From Capnocytophaga sp. ARDL2 (GTDB taxonomy: Bacteria > Bacteroidota > Bacteroidia > Flavobacteriales > Flavobacteriaceae), in assembly GCF_041530365.1 (NCBI RefSeq), contig NZ_CP168034.1:1116001-1180000 (forward strand): a DNA stretch of 64,000 nt, given 5' to 3'. Below the pieces are notes generated by a model. It ran no database searches and was not told where the DNA came from. It was given only the letters and a program-made list of their open reading frames with translations. A program made the position numbers and the translations under genes. Below are positions 39,714 to 61,077 of the stretch, one piece after another; the first letter of the stretch is position 1; each line of letters opens with the position of its first letter.

Positions 39714-39759
39714 CAAAGATTTTCATAATTTTTGATTTTTAAATTGTTATTCATGGTGG

Positions 39760-39833
39760 GGTCCAGTAGCTCAGCTGGATAGAGCAACTGCCTTCTAAGC
39801 AGTAGGTCCTAGGTTCGAATCCTAGCTGGATCA
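39760..39833 (+). tRNA. tRNA-Arg (UCU), copy 2
   Basis: Anticodon TCT; T-arm CTAGG / CCTAG, a compensated change relative to copy 1 (TTAGG / CCTAA). Confidence 0.95.
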
Positions 39834-39841
39834 CTTCATCA

Positions 39842-44042: not shown

Positions 44043-44191
44043 TGTTAATGAATATTATTAATTAATTATTTATGATTCGAGAAAATGAGTTCCAAGGTTA
44101 TTATATTTTTTATAAATGCAAAAGTTTTTTAATTTTTTAAGGAGGAATAATTAAATTTCTAAATTTATTATATGGTAAATTTAAATGTTAT

Positions 44192-44227
44192 AAAAAAAGA
44201 GGCTGTTTTTTACAGTCTCTTTTTTTA
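44192..44227 (-). terminator. Terminator of rimO
   Basis: Stem AAAGAGGCTGT / ACAGTCTCTTT with a TTTT loop and T-run on both sides, directly after the rimO stop. Confidence 0.85.
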
Positions 44228-44228
44228 T

Positions 44229-45542: not shown

Positions 45543-45549
45543 GGTGTTG

Positions 45550-46391
45550 TTAGTTTATTTTGATAATTCCTCCAACGGCGATTATCGTTTGGAAGAAGGT
45601 AAAATCATGAGAGACAGAATCGTTTCCTGTGTCAGATGTTGGACTTTTTACGATGTCGATATATCCCACTTTTGATTCGTATTGAATAAAAAAGTGTTTA
45701 AACAAAGTAATATTTGCACCAATTTTGGCACCAGTACCCCAACCCGCTACATTAAAAGAGTCTTTTCTACCACGACCTAAAACAGTTGCATCTGTACGGG
45801 GATACAAAAATCCTACTCCTGCACCTGCTAACGCATTTATTTGGATTTTGTCTGTGTTTCTGATACCTAAATATTTTGATATATCTCTGTATAGGTAAAT
45901 TCTGTGTTTACATAATTGAGTCCGTCTGTATGCTCAAATTGTAAAAAATGAGGTGTGAGTTTGGTCATTCCATCAGGCATTACCTCATTGTAGCTACCTA
46001 CATTTGGGTAGTGTCCCGTAACTCTTGCTACTTGATTTTGAGTCATTACGTATTTCATGTGGTCAAATCCCAATGACACATTCCACTTGTCAGAAAAGAA
46101 ATACCCCATACGGAAATTGGTTTGAGGAATCGTCAATCTCAATGGATTGATGTAGTCGATGTGCCAACCTTTAGGTCTATCATGAGCCGATGCATCATGA
46201 ACAACAAAATCATAATCAGCTCCTTTGAAATGCAAATCAGAGTTGGAAAAATAACCTCTGTTTCCACCCCAATAGGCAAAGAACTTTCCTTTGTTTCCGT
46301 CTGTAAACTTTTTAGATTCAAAATCTTGTGCTGTAGTTTGTACGCTACTTATCAGAGCAATTGCTCCTATGATATATTGTAATTTTTTCAT
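45550..46391 (-). pseudogene. Outer-membrane barrel gene with a two-base frameshift
   Basis: The ATG at 46391 starts a signal peptide (IIGAIALISSVQTTAQ) and a barrel-like protein up to TYTEIYQNI, where the frame closes at 45867. The continuation lies in another frame to 45550 (LAGAGVGFLYPRTDA, FNVAGWGTGAKIGAN). Removing one AT from GATATATC (45879-45886) gives TEISKYLGIRNTDKIQ and a single 279-residue protein. The end has strands (FFQTIIAVGGIIKIN) typical of a barrel. It is a porin-like outer-membrane protein of unknown function. The break could be a real dinucleotide slippage or an error. Confidence 0.78.
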
Positions 46392-46563
46392 GTGGGAAAA
46401 TTTTTGCAAAGATAAGGTATTAAATTTACATTTTTACATTGAATTCCTCTTAACTTCTTGTTTTTACATATCAGATGATATACGGATTCGAGTTTAAATT
46501 GATAAAACAATTACAAAATAATTTTTATTGTCCAAAGTTCTTTTATAAAATATTACTTACGCT

Positions 46564-49314
46564 TTAATTCTTAAGATTATACAAATACTCTTTGATTATA
46601 ATACCTTTGTGGTCGATTACTTGATACAAACGGTTGAAACTATCGTATCGATAGGATTCTTTTCTACCGTTGGGGTCGGTTATACTACTCACACCTACCA
46701 AAGGTTGATGTAAATAGGTTGTAACAAATCCTTGAGGAAAATGATTTCTCAATTGATTCAAAGCGGTAATTAACAAATTTTCATTGTATTGCAATGGATT
46801 GGAATATTGTGTAATTTGGTTAATTATCGATGTAGGAATCGTCGAATAACGCACATTTTCCAATTTTGCAACCAATTCTGTTTGGTTATATCCCCATATT
46901 TGTGAAACCCATACACCTTTGGCTGTTTTATATTCGAGTATATTTTCGTTTTTGTCATAACGAGTTATTTCTTGCTCCATCTCAAATGGTAATTCTGCCT
47001 TGGCGATATGAGTTTTCGTTAAATTATACCCTTGTTGAAAATTACTCAATCCATATTTTTGATAATCCCATTTCGTACGATTGAGTGGTTGATTGTTTTT
47101 GGTATTGACTACTTGAGTTTTGTAATACGCATTTCCCAATTTTGAATAACTGATTTGTTTGTCTAATGTTTCATTCAATCCTACTAAATGTATTTTTTGT
47201 CGAGTCATATTTTGGGTAATACTATCATACGAACTCTCAATAATAGTTTTATTAGGAATGTTTGAATTGCTTTCATACAATGAAATGGTCGATTTTTCAG
47301 ACAACATTTTAGGGTGAATAGAAACGCTATTCCCATTTATACTCAAATTATATGGAGCAGGTGAAAATGTTTGCTCTATCTCGATAGTTTCAATTAATTG
47401 ATTCAGAGTGTTGTATTTTTTTATGCCGAAAGGATATTTACTTTTAAATACACTATTAGATTCTGATAAATCAAATTCGTTGATAACTTTACCTTTACTA
47501 GGCGTTTCTACCGTTATAAATTTATACATAATCAAAGAATGAAAATCGATGATGTTTCTGGTTTTATACCAATTATCTGTATAATAAGTGGTAAAATAGT
47601 GCGAATATCCACTACTTGTACGCGGATGATTGGGAATTTCGTAAGAAAACAATTGCTCATTGACCACATTTTGATTGGAATTGATATTAGTGGTGTTTTT
47701 TGAGAAACTTTTTATTCGTTTGATACGACTTCCCAAAGTATAATTGTAAAATTTCAATTGGTTAAACGGTTTAGCCTTTTTATAATAGGCTCTTACATAT
47801 TCATAGTACTGCTTGTATTCAGGTTCTATTTTTATAAAATAAATTTCATCATCTAATACCCTATTCAATGTTGCTTTAGGAAAGCAATTGGTGTTGTTTT
47901 TTAGTTGATTATATGATGAAACAGCCGTTTGAGGATTGTTTTTCTTAGAATTCACAGCGTATATTTTAGGGTAATAAAAAGAGTGCTGTGGAAAATTAGT
48001 AAAAATAGGATTTAACTTAAAATCAATAAATAACTGCCTATAAATATCTGTATCATAAGGTTCGTATAATGTCAAATCAACCCAATAGCCACCATTTTGA
48101 GCATCGTAAGTTAGAGGAATTTCTTCAAAAGTATAATTTTCAGCAACACGAGTTTTAAATTCATTTAGAATCATATTATAAACAGGTCTTCCAGGAGTAG
48201 CTCTTGTGAGGTTTGTATATTCTTTGTACCCAACAGTATTAGGTTCGTATTCATAAAAAGTTACACCGCCCTCTGGAGTGATGATCTTTGAAACAGCTCC
48301 TAAAGAAAAATAGAGGTTTGCAGGAATAAAACCATTATCAGGACATTCTATTTTGTGATAAAAACCATTATAATTTTTATCAGGAGAACCACCTATCAAA
48401 TCATAGAATATTTGATAGGTTCTTTTAGCTGTTCTTTGCTTGTTGTGAAAAACTACTTTGCCTAATGCTACTTTGAAAAAACTAGAGGTCATTTCAAAAT
48501 CTATATCCGCTATCACATGACCGCTTAAATTTTTATACTTCAAATTTCTTTTTGGAGACTGTTTAGGAGAAAGCTCAATTGTGCCTTTATTAATAATATC
48601 AACAGATTTGAAGTTACAACTGTATTTTTTTCTAAATGTTACAGTTTTTGTATTTTCCTCGTCGTAATTGTATTTCAATAATTCGTTATTGTGTTTGTCT
48701 TGTATCCAACTTACATAAAAAGTTCGTTTTTCTGCAAACAGTGTATTTGTAAAAGCCCCTTCGGAAACTCCTTCTTTGGCACTATTTGCAAAATGATATT
48801 TAGTACCATGCTTGTCAGTAATAGTAAATGTATGCAATCGAAACTTTTCATTTGAATATGTATAATGAAATTGAATATCAGCATAATCATTTTGTTCTAA
48901 CACTTTGATTGTAAAATTCGTATTTTTTTTAACGATTACAAATTTTCCAGTCAATCCCATTATGCTATAATGATAAACAGCATTTCCGTTTTTAGAATGA
49001 AAATCGGAATAATAAGATTCGTCATACCCCGAAGTAATTGCAATACTACCTATTAGGTTCAACGACCAACAGTCTCCTATATCATTGGTAGAAAAATATT
49101 TATTGATCGATGCATAGTGATTGTTTTCTACTTTTAGTGAAAAAGAGAAGTTAGGATTTTGCGTTTTTACATCAAACAGTGGAATTTCAATTTGCGGAAT
49201 ACCTGTATGCAAAGCCACTGGAAACACGGCATTGTTTACCGTTTGTACATTAGATTCTTGTGCAAAATTGAAATAACTGATACAACAAAATATCATTGTG
49301 TAGATTTTTTTCAT
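46564..49314 (-). CDS. RHS-like/YD-repeat surface protein, last gene of the toxin operon
   Basis: A protein of 916 residues with a signal peptide (MIFCCISYFNFAQ). The first half resembles the N-terminal shell of large Bacteroidota RHS proteins: VALHTGIPQIEIPLFDV, then NDIGDCWSLNLIGSIA. The C-terminus has YD-repeat elements (DPNGRKESYRYDSFNRLYQVIDHKG). It has no conserved RHS-core end or toxin tip, so it may be the shell-type partner of the main RHS protein rather than a toxin; this is inference. It begins nine bases after a lipoprotein gene and is the downstream end of a long minus-strand unit. Confidence 0.72.
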   Translation of the reverse strand: MKKIYTMIFCCISYFNFAQESNVQTVNNAVFPVALHTGIPQIEIPLFDVKTQNPNFSFSLKVENNHYASINKYFSTNDIGDCWSLNLIGSIAITSGYDESYYSDFHSKNGNAVYHYSIMGLTGKFVIVKKNTNFTIKVLEQNDYADIQFHYTYSNEKFRLHTFTITDKHGTKYHFANSAKEGVSEGAFTNTLFAEKRTFYVSWIQDKHNNELLKYNYDEENTKTVTFRKKYSCNFKSVDIINKGTIELSPKQSPKRNLKYKNLSGHVIADIDFEMTSSFFKVALGKVVFHNKQRTAKRTYQIFYDLIGGSPDKNYNGFYHKIECPDNGFIPANLYFSLGAVSKIITPEGGVTFYEYEPNTVGYKEYTNLTRATPGRPVYNMILNEFKTRVAENYTFEEIPLTYDAQNGGYWVDLTLYEPYDTDIYRQLFIDFKLNPIFTNFPQHSFYYPKIYAVNSKKNNPQTAVSSYNQLKNNTNCFPKATLNRVLDDEIYFIKIEPEYKQYYEYVRAYYKKAKPFNQLKFYNYTLGSRIKRIKSFSKNTTNINSNQNVVNEQLFSYEIPNHPRTSSGYSHYFTTYYTDNWYKTRNIIDFHSLIMYKFITVETPSKGKVINEFDLSESNSVFKSKYPFGIKKYNTLNQLIETIEIEQTFSPAPYNLSINGNSVSIHPKMLSEKSTISLYESNSNIPNKTIIESSYDSITQNMTRQKIHLVGLNETLDKQISYSKLGNAYYKTQVVNTKNNQPLNRTKWDYQKYGLSNFQQGYNLTKTHIAKAELPFEMEQEITRYDKNENILEYKTAKGVWVSQIWGYNQTELVAKLENVRYSTIPTSIINQITQYSNPLQYNENLLITALNQLRNHFPQGFVTTYLHQPLVGVSSITDPNGRKESYRYDSFNRLYQVIDHKGIIIKEYLYNLKN

Positions 49315-49323
49315 CGTGTATTT

Positions 49324-49878
49324 TTATTTATTTAATAACATCTGATTTTCAATCAACAATATATTTTTTTTTCTATTTTCCAATAAAAAATAAAACGTTT
49401 CACAATCCAAATCACGAAAATTATATTCAATATAAGGGATTTGCCAACCATCCTCCAAAACGAAATTTTCAACATTCAGCAAATCAAAAATTCTATTTTT
49501 TATTTTTTCATTTTCGCTAAAAGCACTAATTTCATTAACAAATTGGTGGGAAATTTCAATAAATTCTTTTCCTTCTTTGGTCATTTTTGTTCGCTTTCCC
49601 TTTTCAAAAAAAGGATTGTATTCTCCTGTACACAAACGCTGATAATATTCGAGCTTTTCCAAATAATTATCTATCAAAAAAGAAAGTTTTGCTTCTCCTT
49701 TTCTTAATTCCTCATTTGAATTTTTAAGATAAACAATGTCTTCTGTAAACGAATGTTGTACATTCATCACAGACCTATCCAATACCAAGGGTTCTTTAGG
49801 TAAATTGGGTACATTTGTCGGTTTTTCTTTACACGAAACAAAAATCAATGTGAGTAATAAAATAGTTGTTGTTTTCAT
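49324..49878 (-). CDS. Lipoprotein, candidate immunity protein (paralogue of 51595)
   Basis: A protein of 184 residues starting MKTTTILLLTLIFVSC, almost the same as the signal of the lipoprotein at 51595-52143. The two also share the end (YFLLENRKKNILLIENQMLLNK here). The mature protein is helical and charged. Its place among RHS tips suggests a surface or periplasmic immunity lipoprotein; there is no direct proof. It follows a small membrane protein by 14 bases. Confidence 0.65.
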   Translation of the reverse strand: MKTTTILLLTLIFVSCKEKPTNVPNLPKEPLVLDRSVMNVQHSFTEDIVYLKNSNEELRKGEAKLSFLIDNYLEKLEYYQRLCTGEYNPFFEKGKRTKMTKEGKEFIEISHQFVNEISAFSENEKIKNRIFDLLNVENFVLEDGWQIPYIEYNFRDLDCETFYFLLENRKKNILLIENQMLLNK

Positions 49879-49892
49879 TTTTTATTATAAAT

Positions 49893-50243
49893 TTACCTCG
49901 ACAAGAAATACACTGTTGGAAAAATAAAAGCAACAAACCAAAATATAGCATTGAGAATACCATCTTTCATTAACGATAAATCGTTACTCCAAAATGTATC
50001 TTTCGGTTCTCGACCATAAAATTTCACAATTATCCAAACAAGAATTTTATACGAAACCCATTGAATAATAGGGATTTTTAAAAACTCAATTCCTTTTATA
50101 TCTTTAAACAAAACAGCTAATAGAAAAAATAAAGTTCCTAATACAATGAAGTATTTGTTGTATTTTGGATTACTCAATATAGTTCTATCAAATAAGAAAA
50201 TAGCTACTATTATTAAACTTATTATCAAAAATAAAGGTGCCAT
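49893..50243 (-). CDS. Small polytopic membrane protein of the RHS operon
   Basis: A protein of 116 residues from the ATG at 50243, with four hydrophobic segments (APLFLIISLIIVAIFL, FIVLGTLFFLLAVLF, IIQWVSYKILVWIIV, GILNAIFWFVAFIFPTVYFL). No family is recognised. It could be an immunity protein for a membrane-acting tip that is no longer next to it, or a leftover of an older cassette. The longer frame to 50279 starts at TTG and is not preferred. Confidence 0.6.
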   Translation of the reverse strand: MAPLFLIISLIIVAIFLFDRTILSNPKYNKYFIVLGTLFFLLAVLFKDIKGIEFLKIPIIQWVSYKILVWIIVKFYGREPKDTFWSNDLSLMKDGILNAIFWFVAFIFPTVYFLSR

Positions 50244-50318
50244 AAATATATTAATTAAAAGAATTGTACAATGAATCAAATGCTCCTAAACTATCTGCAA
50301 CACCAAGAGTAATTGAAA

Positions 50319-50717
50319 TTACCTTAATAGCATAGGTTGTTGTTTTACAATTTGTTTAAACCCAGAAGCACTAAATTTGATAACCCCTTTATCTAATAAT
50401 ATTTCATAATCATATAAAAACACTTTGCCATTGACAGATTTTCTTTTGTTTTTCATAATAATTTCTGAAATATACAATGACATTGAATCTTTATAATCTA
50501 TAGAAATTTCTAAATTAGAAACATCATTAAAAATCAAAGTACAAGGCGAAATCCATAAATCATAAACATTTTGCTTATTTAAATCCCATTTAAATATATA
50601 TTCAAGTTCAATTTTAAACTCGAAATTGTTATCTGGAAAAGATATTGAATGAATTAAAGAGTCATGCCAACTCATATCAATAAAATCTGTTTCTGTCCAA
50701 ACATTTTTTTCTATCAT
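50319..50717 (-). CDS. Candidate immunity protein for RHS tip 1
   Basis: A soluble protein of 132 residues without signal or membrane segment. It opens with WTETDFIDMSWHDSLIHSISF; the W-HDS-I pattern resembles small immunity families of polymorphic toxins. Its ATG overlaps the stop of the tip-1 toxin gene by four bases, the classical toxin-immunity order. Cytoplasmic location fits a toxin with an intracellular target. Confidence 0.65.
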   Translation of the reverse strand: MIEKNVWTETDFIDMSWHDSLIHSISFPDNNFEFKIELEYIFKWDLNKQNVYDLWISPCTLIFNDVSNLEISIDYKDSMSLYISEIIMKNKRKSVNGKVFLYDYEILLDKGVIKFSASGFKQIVKQQPMLLR

Positions 50718-51603
50718 TTTTTTCTATTTATGTGATTATAGATAGTTCTAATATCTTGTTGTGTCATAGGACGTACCCAATGCCTATCTTTATTCCAAAA
50801 AATTTCACCTGTATTTGGATTAAAATTTTTATATGAATGTTGTACATGAGGGGTTGGAACCCCTTTATGAGTTGCTCCAACTAAGTCATAATGAATAATC
50901 TTATTTGGTGTCCTTAATGAAATAGAGTTTTTTCCAATTTCTTTACTTACTTTAGTCGCTTGTTCAGCAACAGAAGCGGCTTTGTATGCATATTTCCCTC
51001 CTTTTGCTAAATCTCCAAAAGGCAAAATTGATATTGCACTAATAGCAGCACTTCCATAATCTCCGTTAATTAAATATATTACAGCATTTATTCCATCAGA
51101 AATACCTGTTGGATCGAAAACTCCAATTACATCAAGAGTAGTTTGTAATGACGAAACTACACCGTTAGTACCATTATATAAATTTCCACTTCCTCCTATA
51201 TTTCCACCACCACTACCTGAACTACTTCCTGCACCGCCTCCGCCAGTAGTACCGTCGTATTTAAATAATTCGAAAATCATTTCTCCTTTTATGAGATAAG
51301 CAACTTGCAATTTTTGTCCTACGCGTACATAAGAAATCGAATTATGATCAACTCCCCAAAGTCCGTCGGTTCTTTTATACAATTCAAAACCAGACAGATT
51401 ATTCCTCAACGCAAACGATTTCGCCTCCATTTCACTTTCAAACAACCCTGTTCTATCTTGCCAATATATAGGATTATTAAACCCATAACGGTACGGAGTG
51501 ATGTTTGGGGCTAACTCACTTAGCAAATCTATTGAGCTAAATCGCTCAATTGCCGAGTTGTAGTGGCGGAAATCCGTTTCTACAACATGCAATCCTAATC
51601 GTT
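50714..51603 (-). CDS. Orphan RHS tip 1 with pretoxin and putative nuclease-type toxin domain
   Basis: It starts with a copy of the RHS-core end (VVETDFRHYNSAIERFSSID, then NNPIYWQDRTGLFE) without the core. A glycine/serine linker follows, then a hydrophobic pretoxin-like region (GVFDPTGISDGINAVIYLI, AISAISILPFGDLAKGGKYAYKAA), and a C-terminal domain with HYDLVGATHKGVPTPHVQ and HWVRPMTQQDIRTIYNHI. That end resembles the Ntox24-type family of polymorphic toxins, from memory and unverified. The open frame extends to 51697 only through the end of the upstream lipoprotein gene in another frame, so there is no real start: it is probably a silent cassette that can recombine into the main RHS gene. 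Confidence 0.68.
51245..51603 (-). repeat. RHS-core-end repeat, copy C
   Basis: Near-identical to copy B over about 350 bases (core end plus the next 60 codons, up to KYDGTTG); shares the first 180 bases with copy A in the main gene. Confidence 0.85.
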
Positions 51604-52143
51604 TAATAAAACATCTTTTTTTACTAACAACACATCTCTTTTTCTTTTTTCTAATTGAAAAACAACCATTTTTGGAGAATAACCATTGAAATACCAATAC
51701 ATATACAAAGCAAAACTATTTTCACCTATTGGAACATCATGCACCCCTAAAAGTTTTTCTATTCTTAGTTTAGAAGTTGATGAAAGTTCAAATTTCTCAA
51801 AACAAGAAAGATATTCTTTTGTTAGGTTCATAAAATTTTTACTCTCTGCGATTTCTTGGTCGTTTTGAAAAAATGGATTACTGTTTTCAACAGTAGTTTT
51901 TTCAATGATTTCATCTAAATATGTAATATAATCCTCAGTTTTTTGCTTGAAATTTTCATATCCTTCAGTTGTTCGTTTTGACTTTTCTATTTCTAAAATT
52001 TCTTGTTGCAAAAAATCAAAATCACTTTTTTCTTTTTTAGCATATTCAATAAAAAGGTTGTCGTGATTAATTTCATTTCCTTTTTGATTTTCACTACACG
52101 ACACACATATTAATGTGAGTATTAAAATTGTTGTTGTTTTCAT
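51595..52143 (-). CDS. Lipoprotein, candidate immunity protein for tip 2
   Basis: A protein of 182 residues from the ATG at 52143 (MKTTTILILTLICVSC). The mature part is helical and acidic (IEYAKKEKSDFDFLQQEILEIEKSKRTT) and ends VVFQLEKRKRDVLLVKKDVLLND, which is the paralogue of the end of 49324. The tip-2 stop (TAA) precedes its ATG by one base, so the pair is translationally coupled. The end of the gene reads straight into the copy C repeat. Confidence 0.65.
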   Translation of the reverse strand: MKTTTILILTLICVSCSENQKGNEINHDNLFIEYAKKEKSDFDFLQQEILEIEKSKRTTEGYENFKQKTEDYITYLDEIIEKTTVENSNPFFQNDQEIAESKNFMNLTKEYLSCFEKFELSSTSKLRIEKLLGVHDVPIGENSFALYMYWYFNGYSPKMVVFQLEKRKRDVLLVKKDVLLND

Positions 52144-52144
52144 T

Positions 52145-53011
52145 TTATCTAATTGTATCTCCGTTAATAATATATCCTCTTCCATTACTGATAATTACAT
52201 CATAAGCTCTACTTTTTGCACCTACAGGATTGAAAGAGTTAAACCAAATAGTGTCTGTTCTAATATAATTAAAAGACCTTATATCCACTTCGTTATTTGG
52301 AAAAAAACTATCTATTAAATCTTGTCCTATACTAATTCCATCCATTAAAGTTGAAATATGTTTCAAGAGGTTAACTCTTGTATTTAAATCAAGGCTTGGA
52401 CTGTAGATATTATTCATTGAACCGTATAACACTCCATTACTTCCTAAAGAAGAGCCTATAAAGCCAGAACTCATTCCTCCTCCGTATTGAATATAACCAC
52501 TAAAACTATTACCTAAAAAACTACTATTAGAACCATTAGGAATAGCAACATTATGGTGACAACAGGCAGTGGGTATTCCACTTATATTATTGGCTACACC
52601 TAAACTACCACCACTACCAGAATTACTTCCGCTACCGCTACCTCCACCACTACCTGTAGTACCGTCGTATTTAAATAATTCAAAAATCATTTCATCTTTT
52701 ATGAGATAAGCAACTTGCAATTTTTCTCCTACGCGTACATAAGAAATCGAATTATGATCAACTCCCCAAAGTCCGTCGGTTCTTTTATACAATTCAAAAC
52801 CAGACAGATTATTCCTCAATGCAAATGATTTCGCCTCCATCTCGCTTTCAAACAAACCTGTTCTATCTTGCCAATATATAGGATTATTAAACCCATAACG
52901 GTACGGAGTGATGTTTGGGGCTAACTCACTCAACAAATCTATTGAGCTAAATCGCTCAATTGCCGAGTTGTAATGACGGAAGTCGGTTTCTACGGCGTTT
53001 AATCCTAAATG
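52145..53011 (-). CDS. Orphan RHS tip 2, start-less cassette
   Basis: It begins with GLNAVETDFRHYNSAIERF, the RHS-core end, with a TGA in frame 12 bases before. It then carries the same 60-residue segment as tip 1 and a glycine/serine linker. The variable end has ACCHHNVAIPNGS, a glycine-rich stretch, DLNTRVNLLKHISTLMDGI and IISNGRGYIINGDTIR. No toxin family is recognised; the CCHH cluster might bind metal. No plausible start exists upstream of the repeat (the first usable codon is a TTG at 52936), so it is likely silent. Confidence 0.62.
   Translation of the reverse strand, partial: HLGLNAVETDFRHYNSAIERFSSIDLLSELAPNITPYRYGFNNPIYWQDRTGLFESEMEAKSFALRNNLSGFELYKRTDGLWGVDHNSISYVRVGEKLQVAYLIKDEMIFELFKYDGTTGSGGGSGSGSNSGSGGSLGVANNISGIPTACCHHNVAIPNGSNSSFLGNSFSGYIQYGGGMSSGFIGSSLGSNGVLYGSMNNIYSPSLDLNTRVNLLKHISTLMDGISIGQDLIDSFFPNNEVDIRSFNYIRTDTIWFNSFNPVGAKSRAYDVIISNGRGYIINGDTIR
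52655..53011 (-). repeat. RHS-core-end repeat, copy B
   Basis: Same unit as copy C (51245-51603). Differences are scattered single bases, so the two copies are recent or kept alike by recombination. Confidence 0.85.
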
Positions 53012-53035
53012 TCTTTTTCATTACATATTAAAATT

Positions 53036-53428
53036 TTACTTTTGAAAATGAACGATATAGACCAACATAGGATTGTCTTTACTAAAATTTATATGAACAC
53101 TTTCTCTATTAAAATTTTCATCATTTGTAATTGAATAATGATAACCTTTGTATACTAAACTATCTATTTTATTTTCATAATAAGTGAACTTTTTCAAATT
53201 AGCATATAAAATCGATTGTGCTTCTTCATTGGACAAAGGTATAATAAGAGTAGTAGTTTGCGAACTAAAATCTTGTTCTGTTTCAAAACCAATTCTATTT
53301 TCATTTACTTTAAATTCTGTTTGTAACAGTTTATTTAGTTGGTTTATGAAAATTTCTTTATCACTTCTATAGCTATTTGTACAGTTGAAGCATAAGACAT
53401 ACAGTAAAATCAAGATGTTTTTTTTCAT
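53036..53428 (-). CDS. Lipoprotein, candidate immunity protein for tip 3
   Basis: A protein of 130 residues with a lipoprotein signal (ILILLYVLCFNC). The body is helix and strand mixed, with no recognised family. Its ATG overlaps the tip-3 stop by four bases (ATGA). It is intact although its toxin partner is frame-broken, the pattern expected when the toxin is lost but immunity is kept. Confidence 0.62.
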   Translation of the reverse strand: MKKNILILLYVLCFNCTNSYRSDKEIFINQLNKLLQTEFKVNENRIGFETEQDFSSQTTTLIIPLSNEEAQSILYANLKKFTYYENKIDSLVYKGYHYSITNDENFNRESVHINFSKDNPMLVYIVHFQK

Positions 53429-54164
53429 CGTGTATTAATTTTTGTTGTACCATTAAAGTATATAGGATAAGCCGTACCGTGTCCATTAAACATCCCTCCC
53501 ATAAAAGTTAAAAAATTTCTCATTGTAAAAATTTTTCCATGGTGTATTTCAAAATTGTATGTATTGGGTAAAGCCATTATTCTATTATTTCCAATATATA
53601 CTAATGATATATTTCCGTAAATCAACCCTTGCTCTACTCTATTGTTTACAAAATCATTTCCTAAAAAATTAACAACTAACATTTTATGATCTTGATATTC
53701 TAATTTATATTTTAAAATCTTTCCACTGTAATTCCATCAAAATTTAAAGAACTTAAATTTACATAAACAGGTTCTCCTTTACCAAAATTATAATGATATA
53801 TAGCATCTTCAAAAGTAAAATTGTTTAAAAACTTTTGTTTCAAATGTTGTTGATAAAAATCGTTATAACTTTTATAATTTCTATTTCCTAGAAAACTATT
53901 TTTTTTATCACCTCCACTATTATTACTACTGCTTCCACTCCCTTCACCATCCTTATCAAACGAAGACAACTTCATAATATTTTGTACAGTTACTTCTAAT
54001 TCTTGTTTTGCAGTTTGTCCTGTCAATAGCATAAAAATATCTTTAGCGTCTTCGCCTGTAAATTGCCACCCCATCAACTCTCCATTGTGATAAATAGAGG
54101 TTGCATCTGCTCCGCTTGGGGCGCTCCAATATACAGGATTCCCACAAGTGTTATTTATTTTCAT
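53425..54164 (-). pseudogene. RHS-type tip 3 with one-base frameshift
   Basis: It starts at its own ATG (54164) with GNPVYWSAPSGADATS, a divergent version of the NNPIYWQDRTGL core end, then a serine/glycine linker and a toxin-like region. The frame closes at 53712 after ITVERF. Adding one A to the run at 53720-53722 gives ITVEKILKYKLEYQDHKMLVVN and continues to the stop at 53425 (246 residues in all). The domain ends FEIHHGKIFTMRNFLTFMGGMFNG. No family is recognised. The start overlaps the end of the membrane immunity gene. Confidence 0.65.
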
Positions 54165-54543
54165 TTATCCAAGTAATAAAAACAATACAAAAAACTAAAA
54201 ATAAAAGATATAAACCAAATGTCAAATTGTCTCTGAATTTATTTCTATTTTGGGAACTATATCTTTCGTTCAATTTATAAATCCATTTGTTTTTTAAAAA
54301 AAGAAAATAATTTAATCCTATTCCTAATGTTATAAAGAGAATTTTAAAAATAATGTCAGAATCTGAATTAATATTAATTTGAACATTTAAGAGTATTTCA
54401 ACAAAACCTAATGCAATGACGATATGAATCAATTCAAATATTGACATAAAGCAAGTGAAACCTATAACAATAGGTACTGTTTCGTTTTGTTTTAAAGCTA
54501 TTCTGTATATTTTGTAAATCATTAATTTGTAAATTTTTTTCAT
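54151..54543 (-). CDS. Polytopic membrane protein, candidate immunity for the main RHS toxin
   Basis: A protein of 130 residues with about four hydrophobic segments (IVIGFTCFMSIFELIHIVIALGF, IIFKILFITLGIGLNYFLFL, LTFGLYLLFLVFCIVFITW). It begins two bases after the stop of the main RHS gene. The main toxin's tip is hydrophobic and glycine-rich, so a membrane immunity protein is a natural partner. No family name is assigned. Confidence 0.65.
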   Translation of the reverse strand: MKKIYKLMIYKIYRIALKQNETVPIVIGFTCFMSIFELIHIVIALGFVEILLNVQININSDSDIIFKILFITLGIGLNYFLFLKNKWIYKLNERYSSQNRNKFRDNLTFGLYLLFLVFCIVFITWINENK

Positions 54544-54545
54544 TT

Positions 54546-57500
54546 TTAAGAATCTATATAATTATAAAGTTGTTCTCCATACTCATTTTCTAATGCATTT
54601 AGAGCTATTCCTACAACAACTCCAACTCCTGGTATCCATAAATTTAAACCATATTCAATAGTTATAATACCTATCTGAACTCCAACTCTTGTAGTATTTC
54701 CCCATGTCTTGTTGTTATTCCAAGAGTAAATAGCACTTCCTAATGTAGAAACATTACCAACAATAGAAATAGCTCCTGTAACTTTGACTATTTTTGAAAT
54801 AGCTTTTAAATCTTTTGGTGTTGCATTTTTCTTTGCTCTTAACGCACCTGTTTCAAAAATATTAGAAACATGGGTTGCAGTAAACATAACTCCATTATTG
54901 AAATCATTTAATTGATTTCCGAAACTACCTCCACTACTGTTATTTGATGAATTTCCTGTTGTGCCTAAACCAGAACCAACACCTCCCAATCCACCTCCTC
55001 CAGAAGAATCAGCACTCATTATTTCTGTGAAATTTATAACAAGAAGGTTACCAATATTATAAAAACTTTTAAGAGTAGTGCCAATTTTCATATATGTAGT
55101 TGCATCATACCTAACCATCCAAGTTCCTGCATCACTAAATATTTCTGCACAATACATTTTATTTCTCAATGCAAATGATTTCGCCTCCATCTCGCTTTCA
55201 AACAACCCTGTTCTATCTTGCCAATATATGGGATTATTAAATCCATAACGATACGGAGTAATGTTTGGTGCTAATTCACTTAACAAGTCTATTGAGCTAA
55301 ATCGCCCAATTGCCGAGTTGTAGTGGCGGAAATCCGTTTCTACAACATTCAATCTCAATCGTTCTTCGTACTCCTTGTTGAGATATTTGTAGCGATGATT
55401 GGTACTTGCTAACATATTATACCCCTCGTGTTGCAATCCAAATGGGTAATAATTCGCCTCGTCGATGATTTCGCTTACAGGTTCGATACTGCCGTTTTGA
55501 TTGAGGTCGGCATAGCTCAAACGGATATTCCCTAAATGGTCTTTGTACTGATATACATACAAATAACCACCGTTGTGTGGTTTTACATAGCCTTCGGGCT
55601 GGGCAAAAAACTGTAAATTGCCGTTTTCGTATTGAAAACCGTGCGTATAATCACTCGTAACTACTGCTCCTTGGTTGGGCTGTATGCGTTTTTGTAATTT
55701 CGTGCCTACGGCGTCGTAAAGATAATAGATTTTTCCTTGCGAAAGATGTACTTCCACCGGTTGGTTCAAATGATTGTATTTGATATGATAAATCCCCTTG
55801 TTGAGGTCTTCGGTCATATTGCCCAAATTGTCATAGACATAATCCATTCCTTGGGTGTTACCGTCTTTAAATCCTGCTGTGTGGTTGGTAGCATCGGCTA
55901 CATCAAGCAATTGATTGCCCCAATAGTTGTATTGCAAATCGTCTATCTGTACCGTTTGCCCATTGATGGTTGCCCCTGTGCGTTGTAGGGTTTGTATATT
56001 GCCGTTTTTGTCGTAAGTCAATTGCTCTCGGTAATCGTTTTGTAGCAAATAGCCATTCAATGCCGAGCGATACTGCAAACTATGGGCTTGTGTCAGTCGG
56101 TTCAATGGGTCGTACAAATAGCGGTAACCTCGAGTAATTCCGTCGGTTTGTGTTCGCCATATTGTACTGTTGATATTGCCATTATAGAGCGGTTTTGCTC
56201 CTGCCACATTGGGGTTTTGGTTGTAGTTGAGTTGCAAGCTAAACAACTGCTCTGCATCGGCTTGTTGTGGATTGGCATTGTTGATGTCGGTAAGCCAACC
56301 TCTTATGTTGCGTTTGTATTGTACGGTTTGCAAAGGTGTGGTTTTCCCACCTACTTTTTTGGTTGTAAGATTTCCTAAATCGTCGTAACTATGCTCTACA
56401 ATGGTTTCTATGGCTTGATTCCCTATTTGTTGTTGGTGTTTGTGCAACTGATTTTTATGCGTATAGCTATACAAATCTTTTACTACCAAGGGCGTAGATT
56501 GTGCATTTTTCTTATGTGTAGTAATACTTTGCGTTGCCAATCCTTGAAAATTGCGACTGTATTCGGTAGTTGTATCGCCTTGCAAATGATGGGTTGCATA
56601 GGTTTTAATGATGTGATACTTGTTGTTGTACAGCGTATAACTGTGCGAACCCTTCATTTCGTTGGGGTGAGTCAGTGTACGCGTAAAACTTCCTGTGGGC
56701 AATCCTTTTACTTTTTGCAAAGGTGTTTGTCCTTGCACAACAGCAAACTGTGTAGGTGCTTGTGGAAATTGATAATCGTCGTAATACTGCACCGTTAGCA
56801 ATTTGTATTGCGTAGGAAACTGCTCGTTGCTGTATCGCACCGCCAAACCGTCGATGGTTTGTGTAGTGGTGGTTTTTTGTTCGGCATAACTCGGATAGGA
56901 ATTTATCAAATCTTGTAAGGCTTTTCTATCGGCAGAAGAAACGCTATGTTGGTCGTAATATCCTGTGAGAATTGCTCTGCCCAGGGCATCGTATTTTGTC
57001 AATGTCCAACCTTGCGTTTCTGTACCAAAAGGATTATAGACCGGAGCGGTCAAAACTACTCGGTCGTTTTTGTCATAGACGATGTATTCCCAATCTTTTT
57101 GAGGGAGTTTTTTCTCTACCACACGGTTTTTGTGATCGTACAAATATTGATAGGCATACAATTCCAACGACATCACATCAATAGCACCGTTTGTCATTGG
57201 TGGGAGAATGTAGGACAGGTTGCCGTAAAAATCATAAATATGATAAGTGTCTAATACCTCATTGTTGAGGTAAGTTCTCCTCAAAATCAGTTTTTTATCC
57301 AAGGTAGAAAATTCCTCAACGGTATTATTTTTTCCGTCGTTGGGTTGCCAATTTTCGTTTTTGATAGTTTTCTTTTGCAAATTACTTTCTGCAAAAAATC
57401 CACCATTGCTCAGCTGATTGACAAACAGCCCACGAGTGGCATTCCACGAAGAATTTACCACAAATTTCTTTACTTCATTTGCAGTATTAAACCCATATTG

Positions 57501-58034
57501 TATGCGTTGCGTATGGCGATGATTTTCATTGGCAGACGAAGCCAAAGACCAAGTTGTACCTGCCGCAGTTTGTTCGATTACTCGAGCATTGGGCGAAGCC
57601 TCTACTCGTTGTTCGCTATACGGATGTTGCCCTTCATCAGGAAAGCGATTTTGATAATAGGTATGCGTTTCGCTTTTTGCATTGGATTCAAAATGAGTAG
57701 AATGTATATTATTCAAAAAAGAACTTCCTATACTACCACTGCTCCCTTTGTTTATTGCAGATTTTACATAAGGCAAATAGTTTTTTACTTGCCCTAAATT
57801 TTTCTCGTATTCGATATGCGTAATAGTATTGAGAATAAAATTTCCCGTATGACTATTAACCACTTGAATCGGTCGTTGAAAACCATCGAAATAAGTAGTA
57901 GTAACCTCTGCTTTAGGAAGCATTGTTGTTTTTCCATTAGGGTAAACAATCTCTGTTGTATGATTTTCTGTAGAGGATTGGGGGTAACTTTTCCAACTAA
58001 AAATCAATAGTAATATATAGAAAAAGTACTTCAT
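54546..58034 (-). CDS. Full-length RHS toxin protein (DUF6443, RHS core, membrane-type tip)
   Basis: A protein of 1162 residues with a signal peptide (YILLLIFSWKSYPQ). The DUF6443-type start (TTTYFDGFQRPIQVV), a YD-repeat shell (about 250-830, for example YDPLNRLTQAHSLQYRSALNG and YDKNGNIQTL), and the conserved RHS core end (DHLGNIRLSYAD, EVIDEANYYPFGLQHEGYN, NPIYWQDRTGLFE) follow. After FALRN comes a unique tip of about 210 residues with a glycine/serine linker and a strongly hydrophobic end (ITIEYGLNLWIPGVGVVVGIALNAL), suggesting a membrane-damaging toxin; this is inference. It starts one base after the T9SS propeller protein and is followed at once by a membrane immunity candidate. Confidence 0.85.
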   Translation of the reverse strand: MKYFFYILLLIFSWKSYPQSSTENHTTEIVYPNGKTTMLPKAEVTTTYFDGFQRPIQVVNSHTGNFILNTITHIEYEKNLGQVKNYLPYVKSAINKGSSGSIGSSFLNNIHSTHFESNAKSETHTYYQNRFPDEGQHPYSEQRVEASPNARVIEQTAAGTTWSLASSANENHRHTQRIQYGFNTANEVKKFVVNSSWNATRGLFVNQLSNGGFFAESNLQKKTIKNENWQPNDGKNNTVEEFSTLDKKLILRRTYLNNEVLDTYHIYDFYGNLSYILPPMTNGAIDVMSLELYAYQYLYDHKNRVVEKKLPQKDWEYIVYDKNDRVVLTAPVYNPFGTETQGWTLTKYDALGRAILTGYYDQHSVSSADRKALQDLINSYPSYAEQKTTTTQTIDGLAVRYSNEQFPTQYKLLTVQYYDDYQFPQAPTQFAVVQGQTPLQKVKGLPTGSFTRTLTHPNEMKGSHSYTLYNNKYHIIKTYATHHLQGDTTTEYSRNFQGLATQSITTHKKNAQSTPLVVKDLYSYTHKNQLHKHQQQIGNQAIETIVEHSYDDLGNLTTKKVGGKTTPLQTVQYKRNIRGWLTDINNANPQQADAEQLFSLQLNYNQNPNVAGAKPLYNGNINSTIWRTQTDGITRGYRYLYDPLNRLTQAHSLQYRSALNGYLLQNDYREQLTYDKNGNIQTLQRTGATINGQTVQIDDLQYNYWGNQLLDVADATNHTAGFKDGNTQGMDYVYDNLGNMTEDLNKGIYHIKYNHLNQPVEVHLSQGKIYYLYDAVGTKLQKRIQPNQGAVVTSDYTHGFQYENGNLQFFAQPEGYVKPHNGGYLYVYQYKDHLGNIRLSYADLNQNGSIEPVSEIIDEANYYPFGLQHEGYNMLASTNHRYKYLNKEYEERLRLNVVETDFRHYNSAIGRFSSIDLLSELAPNITPYRYGFNNPIYWQDRTGLFESEMEAKSFALRNKMYCAEIFSDAGTWMVRYDATTYMKIGTTLKSFYNIGNLLVINFTEIMSADSSGGGGLGGVGSGLGTTGNSSNNSSGGSFGNQLNDFNNGVMFTATHVSNIFETGALRAKKNATPKDLKAISKIVKVTGAISIVGNVSTLGSAIYSWNNNKTWGNTTRVGVQIGIITIEYGLNLWIPGVGVVVGIALNALENEYGEQLYNYIDS
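55161..55363 (-). repeat. RHS-core-end repeat, copy A (in the expressed gene)
   Basis: About 200 bases closely similar to the start of copies B and C. It ends at FALRN, where the expressed tip takes over. Confidence 0.85.
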
Positions 58035-58035
58035 A

Positions 58036-59532
58036 TTACTCTCTAATCACTTTTATTGAATTTTCAAACGAGTCTGTTTTTACAAAAACAATATAAACAC
58101 CTTGCGGAAACGAACTAAAATCTACGGGAATTATTCCGTGTTTTATTTTTTCGGAATGATACAATTTCCCACTCATATCATATATGCTCAATTCGCCTTG
58201 TTTGTACGATTGATGAATGACTATTTGTGAAAATTCGGCTGTAGGATTGGGAATGGCTTCCAATGGTGTTTGTTGAATAAATTCTTTTCCGTTGTCTTTC
58301 AATTTCAAAATCCAAAAATCCTCTTTTCCAATGCTTTGTTTCTTGTATTGTGGATTTTTTCCTGTAGAATTTCCTGCCAAAACTATTCCTTGGTCTCTGG
58401 TAAATACGGCTTTTCTCAGTAAATCATCGCCGTCGGTAGTTATGATTTTGTCCCAAATTTTATTTCCATTTCCATCTAATAGCAACGAAAAATATTGCTG
58501 TTTATTCGTGCGAATATCTTGTAAAATTCCTGCTAATAAATACTGATTGTCTTTTGTTTTTACAGTCGAACTCAACTGTACATCGCCCGAAAAGGAATGT
58601 GCTGTTTTATGAATGATTTGAAAATTTTTATCCAACTGCCAAAACACAATTTCTTGTATTCCGCTTTCTAAAGATGTTCCTGTTAGGGTATAATTTTCAG
58701 TGTTTTTATCCCAAAATAAATCGTTAGAAAAATCATTTTCTAAAGTTCCTATTGTTTTTTGTTGCAATAAATTTCCTTGTTTGTCTAATTTTAAAATTAC
58801 AATATCGTTTGAACCCGATGGATTTATCGATTTAGTAAACGAATTGCCCAAAATCACAAAACTGTCCTGCAATTCCACAACCGCTTGAGGAATATCGTTG
58901 TAATTTTTACCAAAACTTTTCTCCCAAACCAATTGTCCAAAAGCGTTGATTTTCAATAACCAAAAATCCAAACCTCCGAAGTTATCTTGCGATTTAAACG
59001 CATGTTTATCCGAATTGGAAGTAGCTAAAATCAAAAATCCTTTATCTTGAGTTTCAATGATTTTTATCAATTGTTCGTTGCCTAATCCACCATAGGATTG
59101 TTCCCAAACCAATTGCCCTTTTGCATTGATTTTTACCAACCAAAGGTCGTTTTTTCCAAAATTTTCACTCGATTTATCTGCACTAATTCCAGAATTGGAA
59201 TAACCGCCCAACAAATAGCCTACATCTGAAGTTTGCACTATACTTTGTAACACATCTTGCCCATCTCCACCAAAACTCAACTGCCATTCGGGATTGCCTT
59301 CACGATTCATTTTCCAAAGGAAATAATCCAAATCACCTTTGTTTTCTTCTTTTTTCAGTCCCGATTTGTCTGAAACCGAACTACCAGCCAACAAAAAGCC
59401 ATAATCTACTGTTGGAACCATGTCAAACAAATAATCGGCGTGCGAACCACCGACTGTTTTTTGCCATAAAACTTCTTGGGAATATATTGTGAAACAGACA
59501 ACTAATGATAAAAATGTAGTGAATTTTTTCAT
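58036..59532 (-). CDS. T9SS-secreted beta-propeller protein (type A sorting domain), first gene of the RHS operon
   Basis: A protein of 498 residues with a signal peptide (FLSLVVCFTIYSQ). About seven propeller blades of the type DLWLVKINAKGQLVWEQSYGG fill residues 25-420, and a type A sorting domain closes the protein (EAIPNPTAEFSQIVI, LSIYDMSGKLYHSEKI, FPQGVYIVFVKT). T9SS would export it to the surface. The next gene is the main RHS toxin, one base away. The tight pairing suggests that it presents, anchors or helps export the RHS protein, which lacks a sorting domain of its own. The promoter was not clearly resolved. Confidence 0.85.
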   Translation of the reverse strand: MKKFTTFLSLVVCFTIYSQEVLWQKTVGGSHADYLFDMVPTVDYGFLLAGSSVSDKSGLKKEENKGDLDYFLWKMNREGNPEWQLSFGGDGQDVLQSIVQTSDVGYLLGGYSNSGISADKSSENFGKNDLWLVKINAKGQLVWEQSYGGLGNEQLIKIIETQDKGFLILATSNSDKHAFKSQDNFGGLDFWLLKINAFGQLVWEKSFGKNYNDIPQAVVELQDSFVILGNSFTKSINPSGSNDIVILKLDKQGNLLQQKTIGTLENDFSNDLFWDKNTENYTLTGTSLESGIQEIVFWQLDKNFQIIHKTAHSFSGDVQLSSTVKTKDNQYLLAGILQDIRTNKQQYFSLLLDGNGNKIWDKIITTDGDDLLRKAVFTRDQGIVLAGNSTGKNPQYKKQSIGKEDFWILKLKDNGKEFIQQTPLEAIPNPTAEFSQIVIHQSYKQGELSIYDMSGKLYHSEKIKHGIIPVDFSSFPQGVYIVFVKTDSFENSIKVIRE

Positions 59533-59615
59533 TTTATAATTATGTAAAGATAAAGAAATAGTTAGAATACAAATCCTGAATTTCTTGGGACTTGGTATTA
59601 AGGCTAATGCTTACA

Positions 59616-59942
59616 CTAATTCGACACTGCTTTTAATCCTACAATCGAGGCGATGAGTGTGCTAATAAAAAACAATCGCCAAAAGCTAGCGGGTTCTTTG
59701 AAAACAAAAATTCCTACTAATACCGTTCCAACGGCTCCGATACCAGTCCAAACGGCGTAAGCAGTTCCTAAAGGTAAATTTTGAGATACTTTTACCAATA
59801 AACTCATGCTGATAAATGTGCAAACAGCAAATCCTAAATACCACAGATATACCATGTTTCCTGTGGCTTCTTTTGCCTTTCCTAAGCAAAAAGTAAAGGC
59901 TACTTCAAATATTCCTGCTATAATAAGTAATATCCAGTACAT
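59616..59942 (-). CDS. SMR-family small multidrug exporter
   Basis: A protein of 108 residues from the ATG at 59942, with four membrane helices. It has WILLIIAGIFEVAFTFCLGKA (the conserved glutamate of helix 1), YAVWTGIGAVGTVLVGIFVFKEP in helices 3-4 and WRLFFISTLIASIVGLK. The form is nearer to SugE/Gdx (guanidinium export) than EmrE, but this is not certain. It stands alone. Confidence 0.92.
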   Translation of the reverse strand: MYWILLIIAGIFEVAFTFCLGKAKEATGNMVYLWYLGFAVCTFISMSLLVKVSQNLPLGTAYAVWTGIGAVGTVLVGIFVFKEPASFWRLFFISTLIASIVGLKAVSN

Positions 59943-60058
59943 AGTGCTACGCAATTTAGTGCTTGACGATATTTAAACCTTCGGTATTAGAGTCTTCGAC
60001 ACTAGAGATTAGATCCTAACGGCATTAAAGCTTTCGGCATTTAGAAATTCTCAATCTC

Positions 60059-60910
60059 TTAATTAATCATATACCCCAACGCGATTCCCAATACAATTGC
60101 CAACATTTTGGCCGCATTGAATTTGTGTCCTTCGCTACTTTCAAAAATGATGGTTGAGGAAATGTGGAATAAGATACCAATTACAAAAGCTGAAATCTCA
60201 GTGTAATAGGTTTGTAAAAACGGCAATACATCAGAAATATAGGTTCCTGCAGGCGTCATTGCCGCAAATAAGATCATAAACAATGCGATAATTTTTTTGT
60301 TCAAACCTCCTTGGATGAAAAACAATGTCAAAATAATAGCAATGGGGAAGTGGTGAATGGCGATTCCCCAAGCCAAATGCGAATGCTGGCTAATAGGCAT
60401 ACCTTCAAACAAAGCGTGAATACACAAACTAATAAACAATGTCAGCGGAAATGCCTTTTGATGTTCGTGTGTGTGTGTATGTCCGTGTTCGGCACCACGA
60501 GAGAAATATTCCAAAACGATTTGAAAGATAATCCCCAACATAATAAACAAACCAATGTGTTTCATCATACCGTGATCGTGATGTATATGTGCATCTTCGC
60601 TTCCGTGAGAGCAATGTTCATCATGTACATGCTCTTCTTCGTTGTGAATATGTTTCGAAGGATTCTCGTGCGAATGCTCACAATTTTCATCGTGTATATG
60701 TTCATCGTGCTCGTGCGAATGTGAGTGTTCTACTTTTACAATTTCGTTGGCATAGACTTCGGGAAGTAAATGCGAAACCGTCATCGTCAACAAAAAAGCA
60801 CCACTAAATGCCAAAAGTAATTTTACAACCTGTTTGTTTTTCGGTTGCATCACTAACGCAATCAAGTATCCAAGGATTACGGCTATAAAAGGGACAATAT
60901 ATATTTCCAT
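60059..60910 (-). CDS. ZIP family metal transporter with His-rich loop
   Basis: A protein of 283 residues from the ATG at 60910, with about eight membrane helices. Helix 4 and 5 motifs are present (SLCIHALFEGMPI and AWGIAIHHFPIAIIL, the metal path). A long loop between helices 2 and 3 (about 67-125) is rich in histidine, aspartate and glutamate (HSHSHEHDEHIHDENCEHSH). ZIP proteins import zinc, iron or manganese; the loop may bind or sense zinc. The leader contains a hairpin at 60925-60955. Confidence 0.9.
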   Translation of the reverse strand: MEIYIVPFIAVILGYLIALVMQPKNKQVVKLLLAFSGAFLLTMTVSHLLPEVYANEIVKVEHSHSHEHDEHIHDENCEHSHENPSKHIHNEEEHVHDEHCSHGSEDAHIHHDHGMMKHIGLFIMLGIIFQIVLEYFSRGAEHGHTHTHEHQKAFPLTLFISLCIHALFEGMPISQHSHLAWGIAIHHFPIAIILTLFFIQGGLNKKIIALFMILFAAMTPAGTYISDVLPFLQTYYTEISAFVIGILFHISSTIIFESSEGHKFNAAKMLAIVLGIALGYMIN

Positions 60911-60924
60911 AACAATAATAAAAG

Positions 60925-60955
60925 AAAGAGGCAATCCTTTTGAATATACCTCTTT
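60925..60955. other. Hairpin in the leader of the ZIP gene
   Basis: AAAGAGG / CCTCTTT with a 17-base loop, between a -7-like element (TAATTTTG on the minus strand, 60973-60980) and the ATG at 60910. It could be an attenuator or a stray terminator; the evidence is weak. Confidence 0.35.
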
Positions 60956-61044
60956 TTGTAAATTTTAGTTTGCAAAATTAGAAAAAAATATGGTACAAAT
61001 GTGATATTTATTTATATCTTTTATTTCAATCATAAATATTAGGC

Positions 61045-61052
61045 TAACTTTG
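61045..61052 (+). promoter_or_regulatory. -7 promoter element of the RecD-like gene
   Basis: TAACTTTG, a full -7 match 25 bases before the ATG at 61078. A clear TTTG at -33 is missing. Confidence 0.5.
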
Positions 61053-61077
61053 TAGTTGAAATCACATTTAGCATATT

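What the first reader, a model, noticed from the sequence alone, without database searches (positions are those of the whole stretch)
46564..59532. T9SS-linked RHS toxin operon of about 13 kb
Eleven genes or cassettes on the minus strand are spaced by less than about 80 bases or overlap: a T9SS type A propeller protein, a full RHS protein, membrane and lipoprotein immunity candidates, three extra tips and a second RHS-like protein. The first gene carries a T9SS signal while the RHS protein has only a signal peptide. This suggests that surface delivery depends on T9SS through a partner, a route not typical of known RHS systems (type VI or Tc-like).
Basis: partly seen in the sequence, partly recalled or inferred. 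Interest (0 to 1): 0.75.

Follow-up and report, generated by a model that had tools for sequence, protein, structure and literature searches.

The report
T9SS-linked RHS toxin module with tips
A bacterial gene cluster pairs a predicted toxin-carrying shell protein with a separate surface propeller that bears the export tag the toxin itself lacks, and relatives suggest that the same shell can pair with other exit partners instead.

Summary
In detail: a minus-strand run of 13 ORFs (46564-59532) with a seven-bladed propeller carrying a T9SS type A sorting domain, a DUF6443/RHS-core protein without one, candidate immunity genes and three displaced tips. The "second RHS-like protein" is better read as RHS-N, the third core gene: in relatives it sits beside the other two, usually propeller, RHS-N, RHS-C; in the window it lies behind the tips. 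The genome has SprA (T9SS) and no hit to two T6SS sheath models. In the genus sample 16 of 19 strong propeller loci are RHS-linked, and propeller and RHS-C distances agree beyond SprA (partial Mantel 0.88; 0.63 without the window genome). But the propeller is not universal: 23 of 26 RHS-C loci fetched from the wider family lack it, and 17 of 34 propeller-less loci have Gsp (type II-like) or tail-fibre-like genes in the fetched stretch, against 0 of 15 with it (not corrected for descent). A T9SS link for Rhs proteins was already proposed for Apibacter. Best reading: a new variant of T9SS-linked polymorphic toxin, with the propeller as in-trans carrier or surface anchor. Binding and export are untested.

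The parts
58036..59532 (-). P0001: signal peptide (by eye), seven-bladed beta-propeller, T9SS type A sorting domain (residues 428-496)
   Evidence: AF2 model mean pLDDT 86.9, 28 strands in residues 21-412 that I read as seven four-stranded blades, and seven strands in 424-497; Foldseek best match CylK 6e-21; TIGR04183 in 17 of 17 aligned propellers
54546..58034 (-). P0002, RHS-C: signal peptide (by eye), DUF6443, RHS repeats, Rhs core, Gly/Ser-rich linker and toxin tip (about residues 1036-1162)
   Evidence: profile of 16 RHS-C proteins matches YenC2 at 1.9e-10 and teneurin-like and Rhs chains
54151..54543 (-). P0003, membrane protein with three hydrophobic segments, candidate immunity protein for the P0002 tip
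   Evidence: hydropathy; role inferred from position
53712..54164 (-). P0004, displaced tip 1 (first part); junction like that of the second locus of this genome
   Evidence: 95% over 21 aa to the L072 tip at 7556-8131
53425..53682 (-). P0005, probably the C-terminal part of the same tip in another frame (not joined or mended)
   Evidence: 37% over 59 aa to the C-terminal end of a tip in region 3
53036..53428 (-). P0006, lipoprotein-like (by eye) candidate immunity protein
   Evidence: Imm59 only at E 0.092, 13.7 bits against a cut-off of 26.9
52145..52936 (-). P0007, displaced tip 2
51595..52185 (-). P0008, lipoprotein-like (by eye) candidate immunity protein
   Evidence: 27% over 96 aa to P0012
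50714..51697 (-). P0009, displaced tip 3 with Ntox24 toxin domain
   Evidence: Ntox24 41.3 bits, cut-off 24
50319..50717 (-). P0010, candidate immunity protein for the Ntox24 tip
   Evidence: inferred from position, no Pfam match
49893..50279 (-). P0011, membrane protein with three hydrophobic segments, candidate orphan immunity protein
   Evidence: no Pfam match
49324..49878 (-). P0012, lipoprotein-like (by eye) protein related to P0008, candidate orphan immunity protein
46564..49314 (-). P0013, RHS-N: signal peptide (by eye), long N part, one RHS repeat near the C-terminus; in relatives beside propeller and RHS-C
   Evidence: RHS_repeat 25.5 bits, cut-off 22; 21-28% identity to 27 other RHS-N proteins

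Best explanation
This is a T9SS-linked Rhs polymorphic-toxin module of three core genes plus a tip store. RHS-N and RHS-C go to the periplasm by their signal peptides and (inferred) assemble a shell that holds the toxin tip. Because the variable toxin occupies the C-terminus of RHS-C, that protein cannot carry a C-terminal T9SS signal; the neighbouring propeller carries it instead, binds RHS-C (inferred from linkage and matched divergence) and is exported by the T9SS as carrier, or as the surface anchor on which the shell is displayed. Displaced tips with candidate immunity genes are a reservoir that recombination at the core junction can bring back on to RHS-C. Shown: gene content, domains, linkage, correlated divergence, SprA present, no sheath-model hit. 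Inferred: binding, shell assembly, T9SS-dependent export, killing of target cells.
For: 20 loci have a propeller with RHS-N or RHS-C beside it (19 fetched plus the window): 13 show P-N-C (L163, L164 and L169 with an end gene cut), 2 P-N cut by a contig end (L165, L166), 2 N-P-C (L191, L203), 1 N-P cut by a contig end (L223), 1 has RHS-N divergent (L154), 1, the window, is P-C-tips-N. In the 12 P-N-C loci measured, 20 of 24 gaps are under 50 bases. Sorting domain in 17 of 17 aligned propellers. Propeller against RHS-C distances: Mantel 0.94, partial given SprA 0.88 (p 0.0001), 11 loci; without the two own loci 0.85 and 0.63 (p 0.0011), 9 loci. SprA in the window genome; PF05943 in 0 of 61 and PF17541 in 6 of 61 genus genomes, not in this one. 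A second P-N-C locus in the same genome with nine tip ORFs that match the RHS-C profile.
Against: No binding or export data. Full RHS-N/RHS-C pairs without propeller: 10 loci in three genus genomes (G006 5, G060 3, G033 2); the best match to P0001 anywhere in G006 is 2.5e-4, confined to the sorting domain, and in G060 3.7e-4, its row not listed. 23 of 26 fetched family loci lack it. Without the own loci the propeller tracks SprA as closely (0.855) as it tracks RHS-C (0.847), so part of the agreement is common descent; some genomes give two loci (G000, G056) with SprA distance zero. RHS-N tracks its partners less (0.57, 0.58; 0.39 each without the own loci). The window's RHS-N is divergent (21-28%) and displaced. 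TcA was not searched for genome-wide.
Confidence: 0.55

Rival explanations
1. The propeller is a T9SS-exported surface protein (for example an adhesin that holds the target cell) that is co-inherited with the toxin but does not carry it; the RHS shell leaves by vesicles, lysis or another route.
For: RHS pairs without the propeller are common; 0 of 56 propeller relatives from named genomes lie near RHS-N or RHS-C, some on short contigs, so the fold has other jobs; without the own loci the propeller tracks SprA as well as RHS-C.
Against: Tight gaps; rearranged loci in which propeller and RHS-C stay next to each other (window, L154, L191, L203); partial Mantel 0.63-0.88 given SprA.
Confidence: 0.25
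2. A decaying island: tips and immunity genes kept for protection, RHS-N displaced and divergent, toxin delivery no longer working.
For: P0004 and P0005 look like one tip broken by a frame change; RHS-N out of its usual place and divergent; the core junction reads QDRTG where the consensus of 16 RHS-C proteins is DPDG.
Against: P0001, P0002 and P0013 are open frames with no stop inside, and P0001 keeps the sorting domain.
Confidence: 0.12
3. An RHS effector of a type VI system or a Tc toxin.
For: Rhs core, and match of the RHS-C profile to YenC2. Three of the six genus genomes with TssC (G004, G052, G056) do have propeller loci.
Against: No PAAR or VgrG domain in P0002 at E 0.1, no sheath-model hit in this genome, no SpvB or TcdB domain in P0002 or P0013. 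TcA was not searched for genome-wide.
Confidence: 0.03
4. The RHS pair is exported by a Gsp (type II-like) apparatus encoded elsewhere in the same genome, the propeller being incidental.
For: Gsp genes lie in the fetched stretch of 9 of 34 propeller-less RHS loci, or 12 if the peptidase and pilin genes at L202 and the parts at L206 and L209 are counted.
Against: No GspE-like match at E <= 1e-10 in the window genome; only one query was used.
Confidence: 0.05

Closest known systems
Apibacter Rhs proteins next to T9SS type A sorting-domain genes (PMC8125069, passages read)
   Same: Majority of Apibacter rhs genes adjacent to type A sorting-domain genes; the authors think T9SS association probable and T6SS not
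   Different: Many of those carry SpvB and TcdB domains; here DUF6443 RHS-C with a separate RHS-N, an identified seven-bladed propeller, matched divergence and alternative partners
TANFOR polymorphic toxins of Bacteroidetes (PMC7073777, passages read)
   Same: Mostly signal peptide, C-terminal toxin, downstream immunity gene, T9SS substrates enriched nearby
   Different: TANFOR domain instead of an RHS shell; no three-gene module in the passages read
Tc toxin B/C shell (YenC2 and kin)
   Same: RHS-C profile matches YenC2; a shell shared by two proteins is inferred here
   Different: No SpvB or TcdB domain in P0002 or P0013; propeller separate and T9SS-tagged
F. psychrophilum Gsp cluster with ABC-toxin-like proteins (PMC5808330, passages read)
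   Same: Gsp genes in one cluster with two genes that have ABC-toxin structural domains, as at propeller-less loci here
   Different: No T9SS propeller mentioned in the passages read
Rhs C-terminal displacement arrays, e.g. Ca. Ornithobacterium hominis (PMC6421346, passages read)
   Same: A full rhs gene with displaced tips and unique genes downstream
   Different: SpvB/TcdB type there, which is more like region 3 of this genome than the window

Membership tests
T9SS type A substrate (propeller P0001) | C-terminal sorting domain above the curated cut-off | tested here: met
T9SS type A substrate (propeller P0001) | T9SS in the genome | tested here: met
   SprA only was searched for
T9SS type A substrate (propeller P0001) | signal peptide | tested here: inconclusive
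   by eye; no predictor was run
T9SS substrate (RHS-C P0002) | own sorting domain | tested here: not met
Polymorphic toxin with C-terminal displacement | shared core junction and variable tips | tested here: met
Polymorphic toxin with C-terminal displacement | tips toxic, neighbours protective | not testable with these tools
   only P0009 has a toxin-family match (Ntox24)
T6SS Rhs effector | PAAR or VgrG N-terminus and a T6SS in the genome | tested here: not met
Tc toxin | SpvB and TcdB domains in the B part | tested here: not met
   SpvB in 1 of 28 RHS-N at E 0.0028
Tc toxin | TcA component in the genome | not tested
Rhs/TcC-like shell protein | Rhs-associated core and RHS repeats | tested here: met
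   core above cut-off; RHS_repeat in P0002 below cut-off, 19.4 against 22; profile match to YenC2
Partner-dependent T9SS export | RHS-C leaves only with T9SS and propeller | not testable with these tools
   needs mutants

The most novel reading that the evidence does not exclude
The RHS-N/RHS-C pair is a portable toxin shell that changes its outer-membrane exit partner: a T9SS-tagged propeller in the window's lineage, and a Gsp pseudopilus-type apparatus or arrays of tail-fibre-like proteins in other lineages, the propeller being an adaptor that lets a protein with a toxic C-terminus use a C-terminal-signal secretion system in trans.
Probability: 0.33. Interest if true: 0.82.

Novelty: new variant of a known kind. 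Interest (0 to 1): 0.6.

Why it matters
T9SS signals sit at the C-terminus, which is where polymorphic toxins carry their variable tip, so how such toxins could use T9SS is an open question; a tagged partner gene is a testable answer. The apparent exchange of the propeller for Gsp or fibre partners gives natural contrasts for that test, and this genome shows the same toxin tip in two different RHS classes.

Tried and rejected
AlphaFold of P0013 as a single sequence failed (mean pLDDT 29.6) and was not used. PDB sequence searches: P0013 alone no match, RHS-N profile only Tre23 at 0.099, P0002 alone nothing relevant; a shell role for RHS-N therefore rests on its RHS repeat, its place in the module and inference. 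PF05943 was 0 of 61 but may miss Bacteroidota T6SS, so PF17541 was run (6 of 61). The Apibacter mensalis locus L065 holds a propeller fragment and no RHS-N/C match, so it gave no support. Sigma-70-type promoter matches were 55 against a shuffled mean of 65.2. Rfam gave no match at 44000-62000. Passages of PMC5524665 added nothing. The careful tree did not finish; the quick one is used, and its labels were made before L174 and L182 were relabelled as Gsp-adjacent.

Weak points of the partner comparison. The 49 labelled loci leave out fetched loci whose RHS-C is cut or scored under 800 bits: L163, L165, L166, L169, L185, L186, L187, L223 (five of them propeller loci). Stretches differ in length (7.4 to 20 kb), labels count genes anywhere in the stretch, and several loci come from one genome. 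The chance of two given sets of 3 genomes in 61 agreeing (1 in 35,990) assumes independence, and the split of GspE matches into 69-70% and 56-58% classes was drawn after seeing the result; the 56-58% class occurs in propeller genomes too (G004, G056). In G060 the GspE match lies on another contig than its RHS loci.
Full report
What is there. The window is bases 1116001-1180000 of a 2.51 Mb single-contig genome. No call names the host; I take the genus to be Flavobacterium only by inference. Between a radical-SAM (rimO-like) gene with a broken-looking outer-membrane protein on one side and an SMR-like transporter, a ZIP transporter and a helicase on the other (some names by eye) lies a 13-kb run of 13 minus-strand ORFs. 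The first is a propeller with a T9SS type A sorting domain. Its AlphaFold model, made with 14 relatives, has mean pLDDT 86.9, strands that I read as seven four-stranded blades, and a seven-strand C-terminal domain; the best Foldseek match is CylK, and the profile of 17 propellers matches CylK at 1.6e-27. The second is RHS-C: DUF6443, Rhs core and tip, with a signal-peptide-like start (by eye) and no sorting domain.

Tips. P0007 and P0009 repeat the core junction of P0002 and differ from it and from each other after a Gly/Ser-rich stretch; P0009 has Ntox24. P0004 has a junction like that of the second locus instead (95% over 21 aa), and P0005 looks like the rest of the same toxin in another frame. 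A small gene follows each tip: P0003 and P0011 have three hydrophobic segments, P0006, P0008 and P0012 look like lipoproteins by eye, P0010 looks like neither. Calling them immunity genes is inference from position; the only family hint is Imm59 for P0006, far below its cut-off.

The module. P0013 has one RHS repeat match. Its homologues lie beside propeller and RHS-C in related genomes. Of 19 genus loci with a strong propeller (best segment E <= 2e-30, 61 genomes sampled), 16 have RHS-N or RHS-C beside them, 2 do not (G009:C2, G016:C104) and 1 ends at a contig end (G028). Among 13 other family genomes with E <= 1e-40 (299 sampled), 4 are linked (G283, G293, G344, G245), 8 are not in the fetched stretch and 1 (G322) cannot be told. 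Of 56 more distant relatives from named genomes, 0 have RHS-N or RHS-C nearby, some on short contigs. The order varies: P-N-C in 13 of 20 loci, N-P-C in two, and in the window P-C-tips-N. A second locus in this genome is P-N-C with nine tip ORFs that match the RHS-C profile.

Partnership. For 11 loci (9 genus, 2 own), propeller and RHS-C distance matrices correlate at 0.94, and at 0.88 given SprA (p 0.0001); without the two own loci 0.85 and 0.63 (p 0.0011). Against this, in that reduced set the propeller tracks SprA just as well (0.855). Propeller with RHS-N is 0.57 and RHS-N with RHS-C 0.58, and 0.39 each in the reduced set. The SprA of G011 is split in the assembly and only its longer ORF (1446 aa) was used. 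So RHS-C and propeller look like the steadier pair, and RHS-N more freely exchanged.

Other partners. Of 50 genomes of other genera with RHS-C at E <= 1e-60 (52 of 299, less the own genome and G060), I fetched one RHS-C locus each from 26, including the three already seen to have a propeller nearby: 3 of 26 have a propeller. With the genus loci, 49 loci were labelled (48 plus the window; those left out are named under Tried and rejected): 0 of 15 propeller loci and 17 of 34 propeller-less loci have Gsp genes or tail-fibre-like genes in the fetched stretch (Fisher p 6.6e-4; 19 of 34 and p 1.1e-4 if L206 and L209 are counted). The Gsp genes match T2SSE, secretin, GspF and, more weakly, pilin and leader peptidase models. 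A GspE-like ATPase occurs at E <= 1e-10 in 8 of 61 genus genomes; its 69-70% identical class only in G006, G033 and G060, the three genus genomes in which I found full N-C pairs without propeller. G033 also has a propeller locus. Three more genus genomes with RHS-C matches (G018, G054, G058) have no propeller and no RHS-N in the fetched stretch. None of these tests is corrected for shared descent. In the quick tree of 50 RHS-C cores the propeller label needs 3 changes against 13.0 in shuffles; all 15 propeller rows fall in a starred 21-row set, and six propeller-less rows (two of G060, three of G006, one of G054) nest inside it, other G006 and G060 rows outside. That fits a gain followed by losses or exchanges, on branches of mixed support.

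Secretion systems. SprA is matched in 61 of 61 genus genomes, over the cut-off in 60, this one included. PF05943 is in 0 of 61 and PF17541 in 6 of 61, not this one; three of those six (G004, G052, G056) have propeller loci.

Tip traffic. The last 150 residues of the second locus's RHS-C are 100% identical to those of an RHS protein with TcdB_toxin_midN in a third region (about 1.32-1.42 Mb), and the last 150 residues of the neighbouring small proteins are 99% identical, so the same tip occurs in two different RHS classes of this genome.

Literature. A T9SS link for Rhs proteins was proposed for Apibacter (PMC8125069, passages) and for TANFOR toxins (PMC7073777, passages); Gsp genes with ABC-toxin-like proteins were noted in F. 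psychrophilum (PMC5808330, passages); a signal peptide plus SpvB plus propeller class is in the 2012 survey of polymorphic toxins (PMC3482391, passages). In the listings I saw no title or abstract start that describes the three-gene module or the partner pattern; most listed papers were not opened, and most subscription papers and all bioRxiv preprints are outside that library.

Verdict. The finding is real and its central idea is reasonable but not new in kind; what is new here is the third gene, the matched divergence of propeller and RHS-C, and the alternative partners. Export through the partner remains an inference.

Noticed in passing
G000:C1:1235555-1260633 (L072, L073): Second propeller, RHS-N, RHS-C locus in the same genome with nine displaced tip ORFs, between uppS/bamA/skp-like genes and a NAD-kinase-like gene (names by eye).
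   Followed up: partly
G000:C1 about 1322909-1415000 (L224-L228, L243, L244): A third, larger RHS region: two giant RHS ORFs (not scanned), each preceded by a 342-aa secreted-looking protein with the same ends (the one scanned has no NCBIfam match), and three 1,595-1,734-aa ORFs with TcdB_toxin_midN.
   Followed up: partly
L174, L175, L182, L184, L188, L204, L208, L210, L213: Gsp (type II/pilus-like) genes near RHS-C genes that lack the propeller.
   Followed up: yes
L174, L180, L192, L193, L197, L202, L211, L212: Tail-fibre-like proteins, mostly about 300 aa and often in runs, upstream of RHS-N; the one scanned with Pfam matches phage T4 gp36 below its cut-off.
   Followed up: partly
window 45550-46409 (-): Two adjacent ORFs that look like one outer-membrane protein in pieces.
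   Followed up: no
window 39220-39834 (+): A tRNA-Ser, tRNA-Pro, tRNA-Arg block present twice in a row.
   Followed up: no
whole window: The pattern TTTG-N15-22-TAnnTTTG (Bacteroidota-type promoter, recalled) occurs 23 times against 7.6 in shuffles; no exact match lies directly before the propeller gene.
   Followed up: no
L194, L198, L200, L204: A secreted-looking protein of about 150 aa lies between RHS-N and RHS-C; no NCBIfam match for these four.
   Followed up: partly
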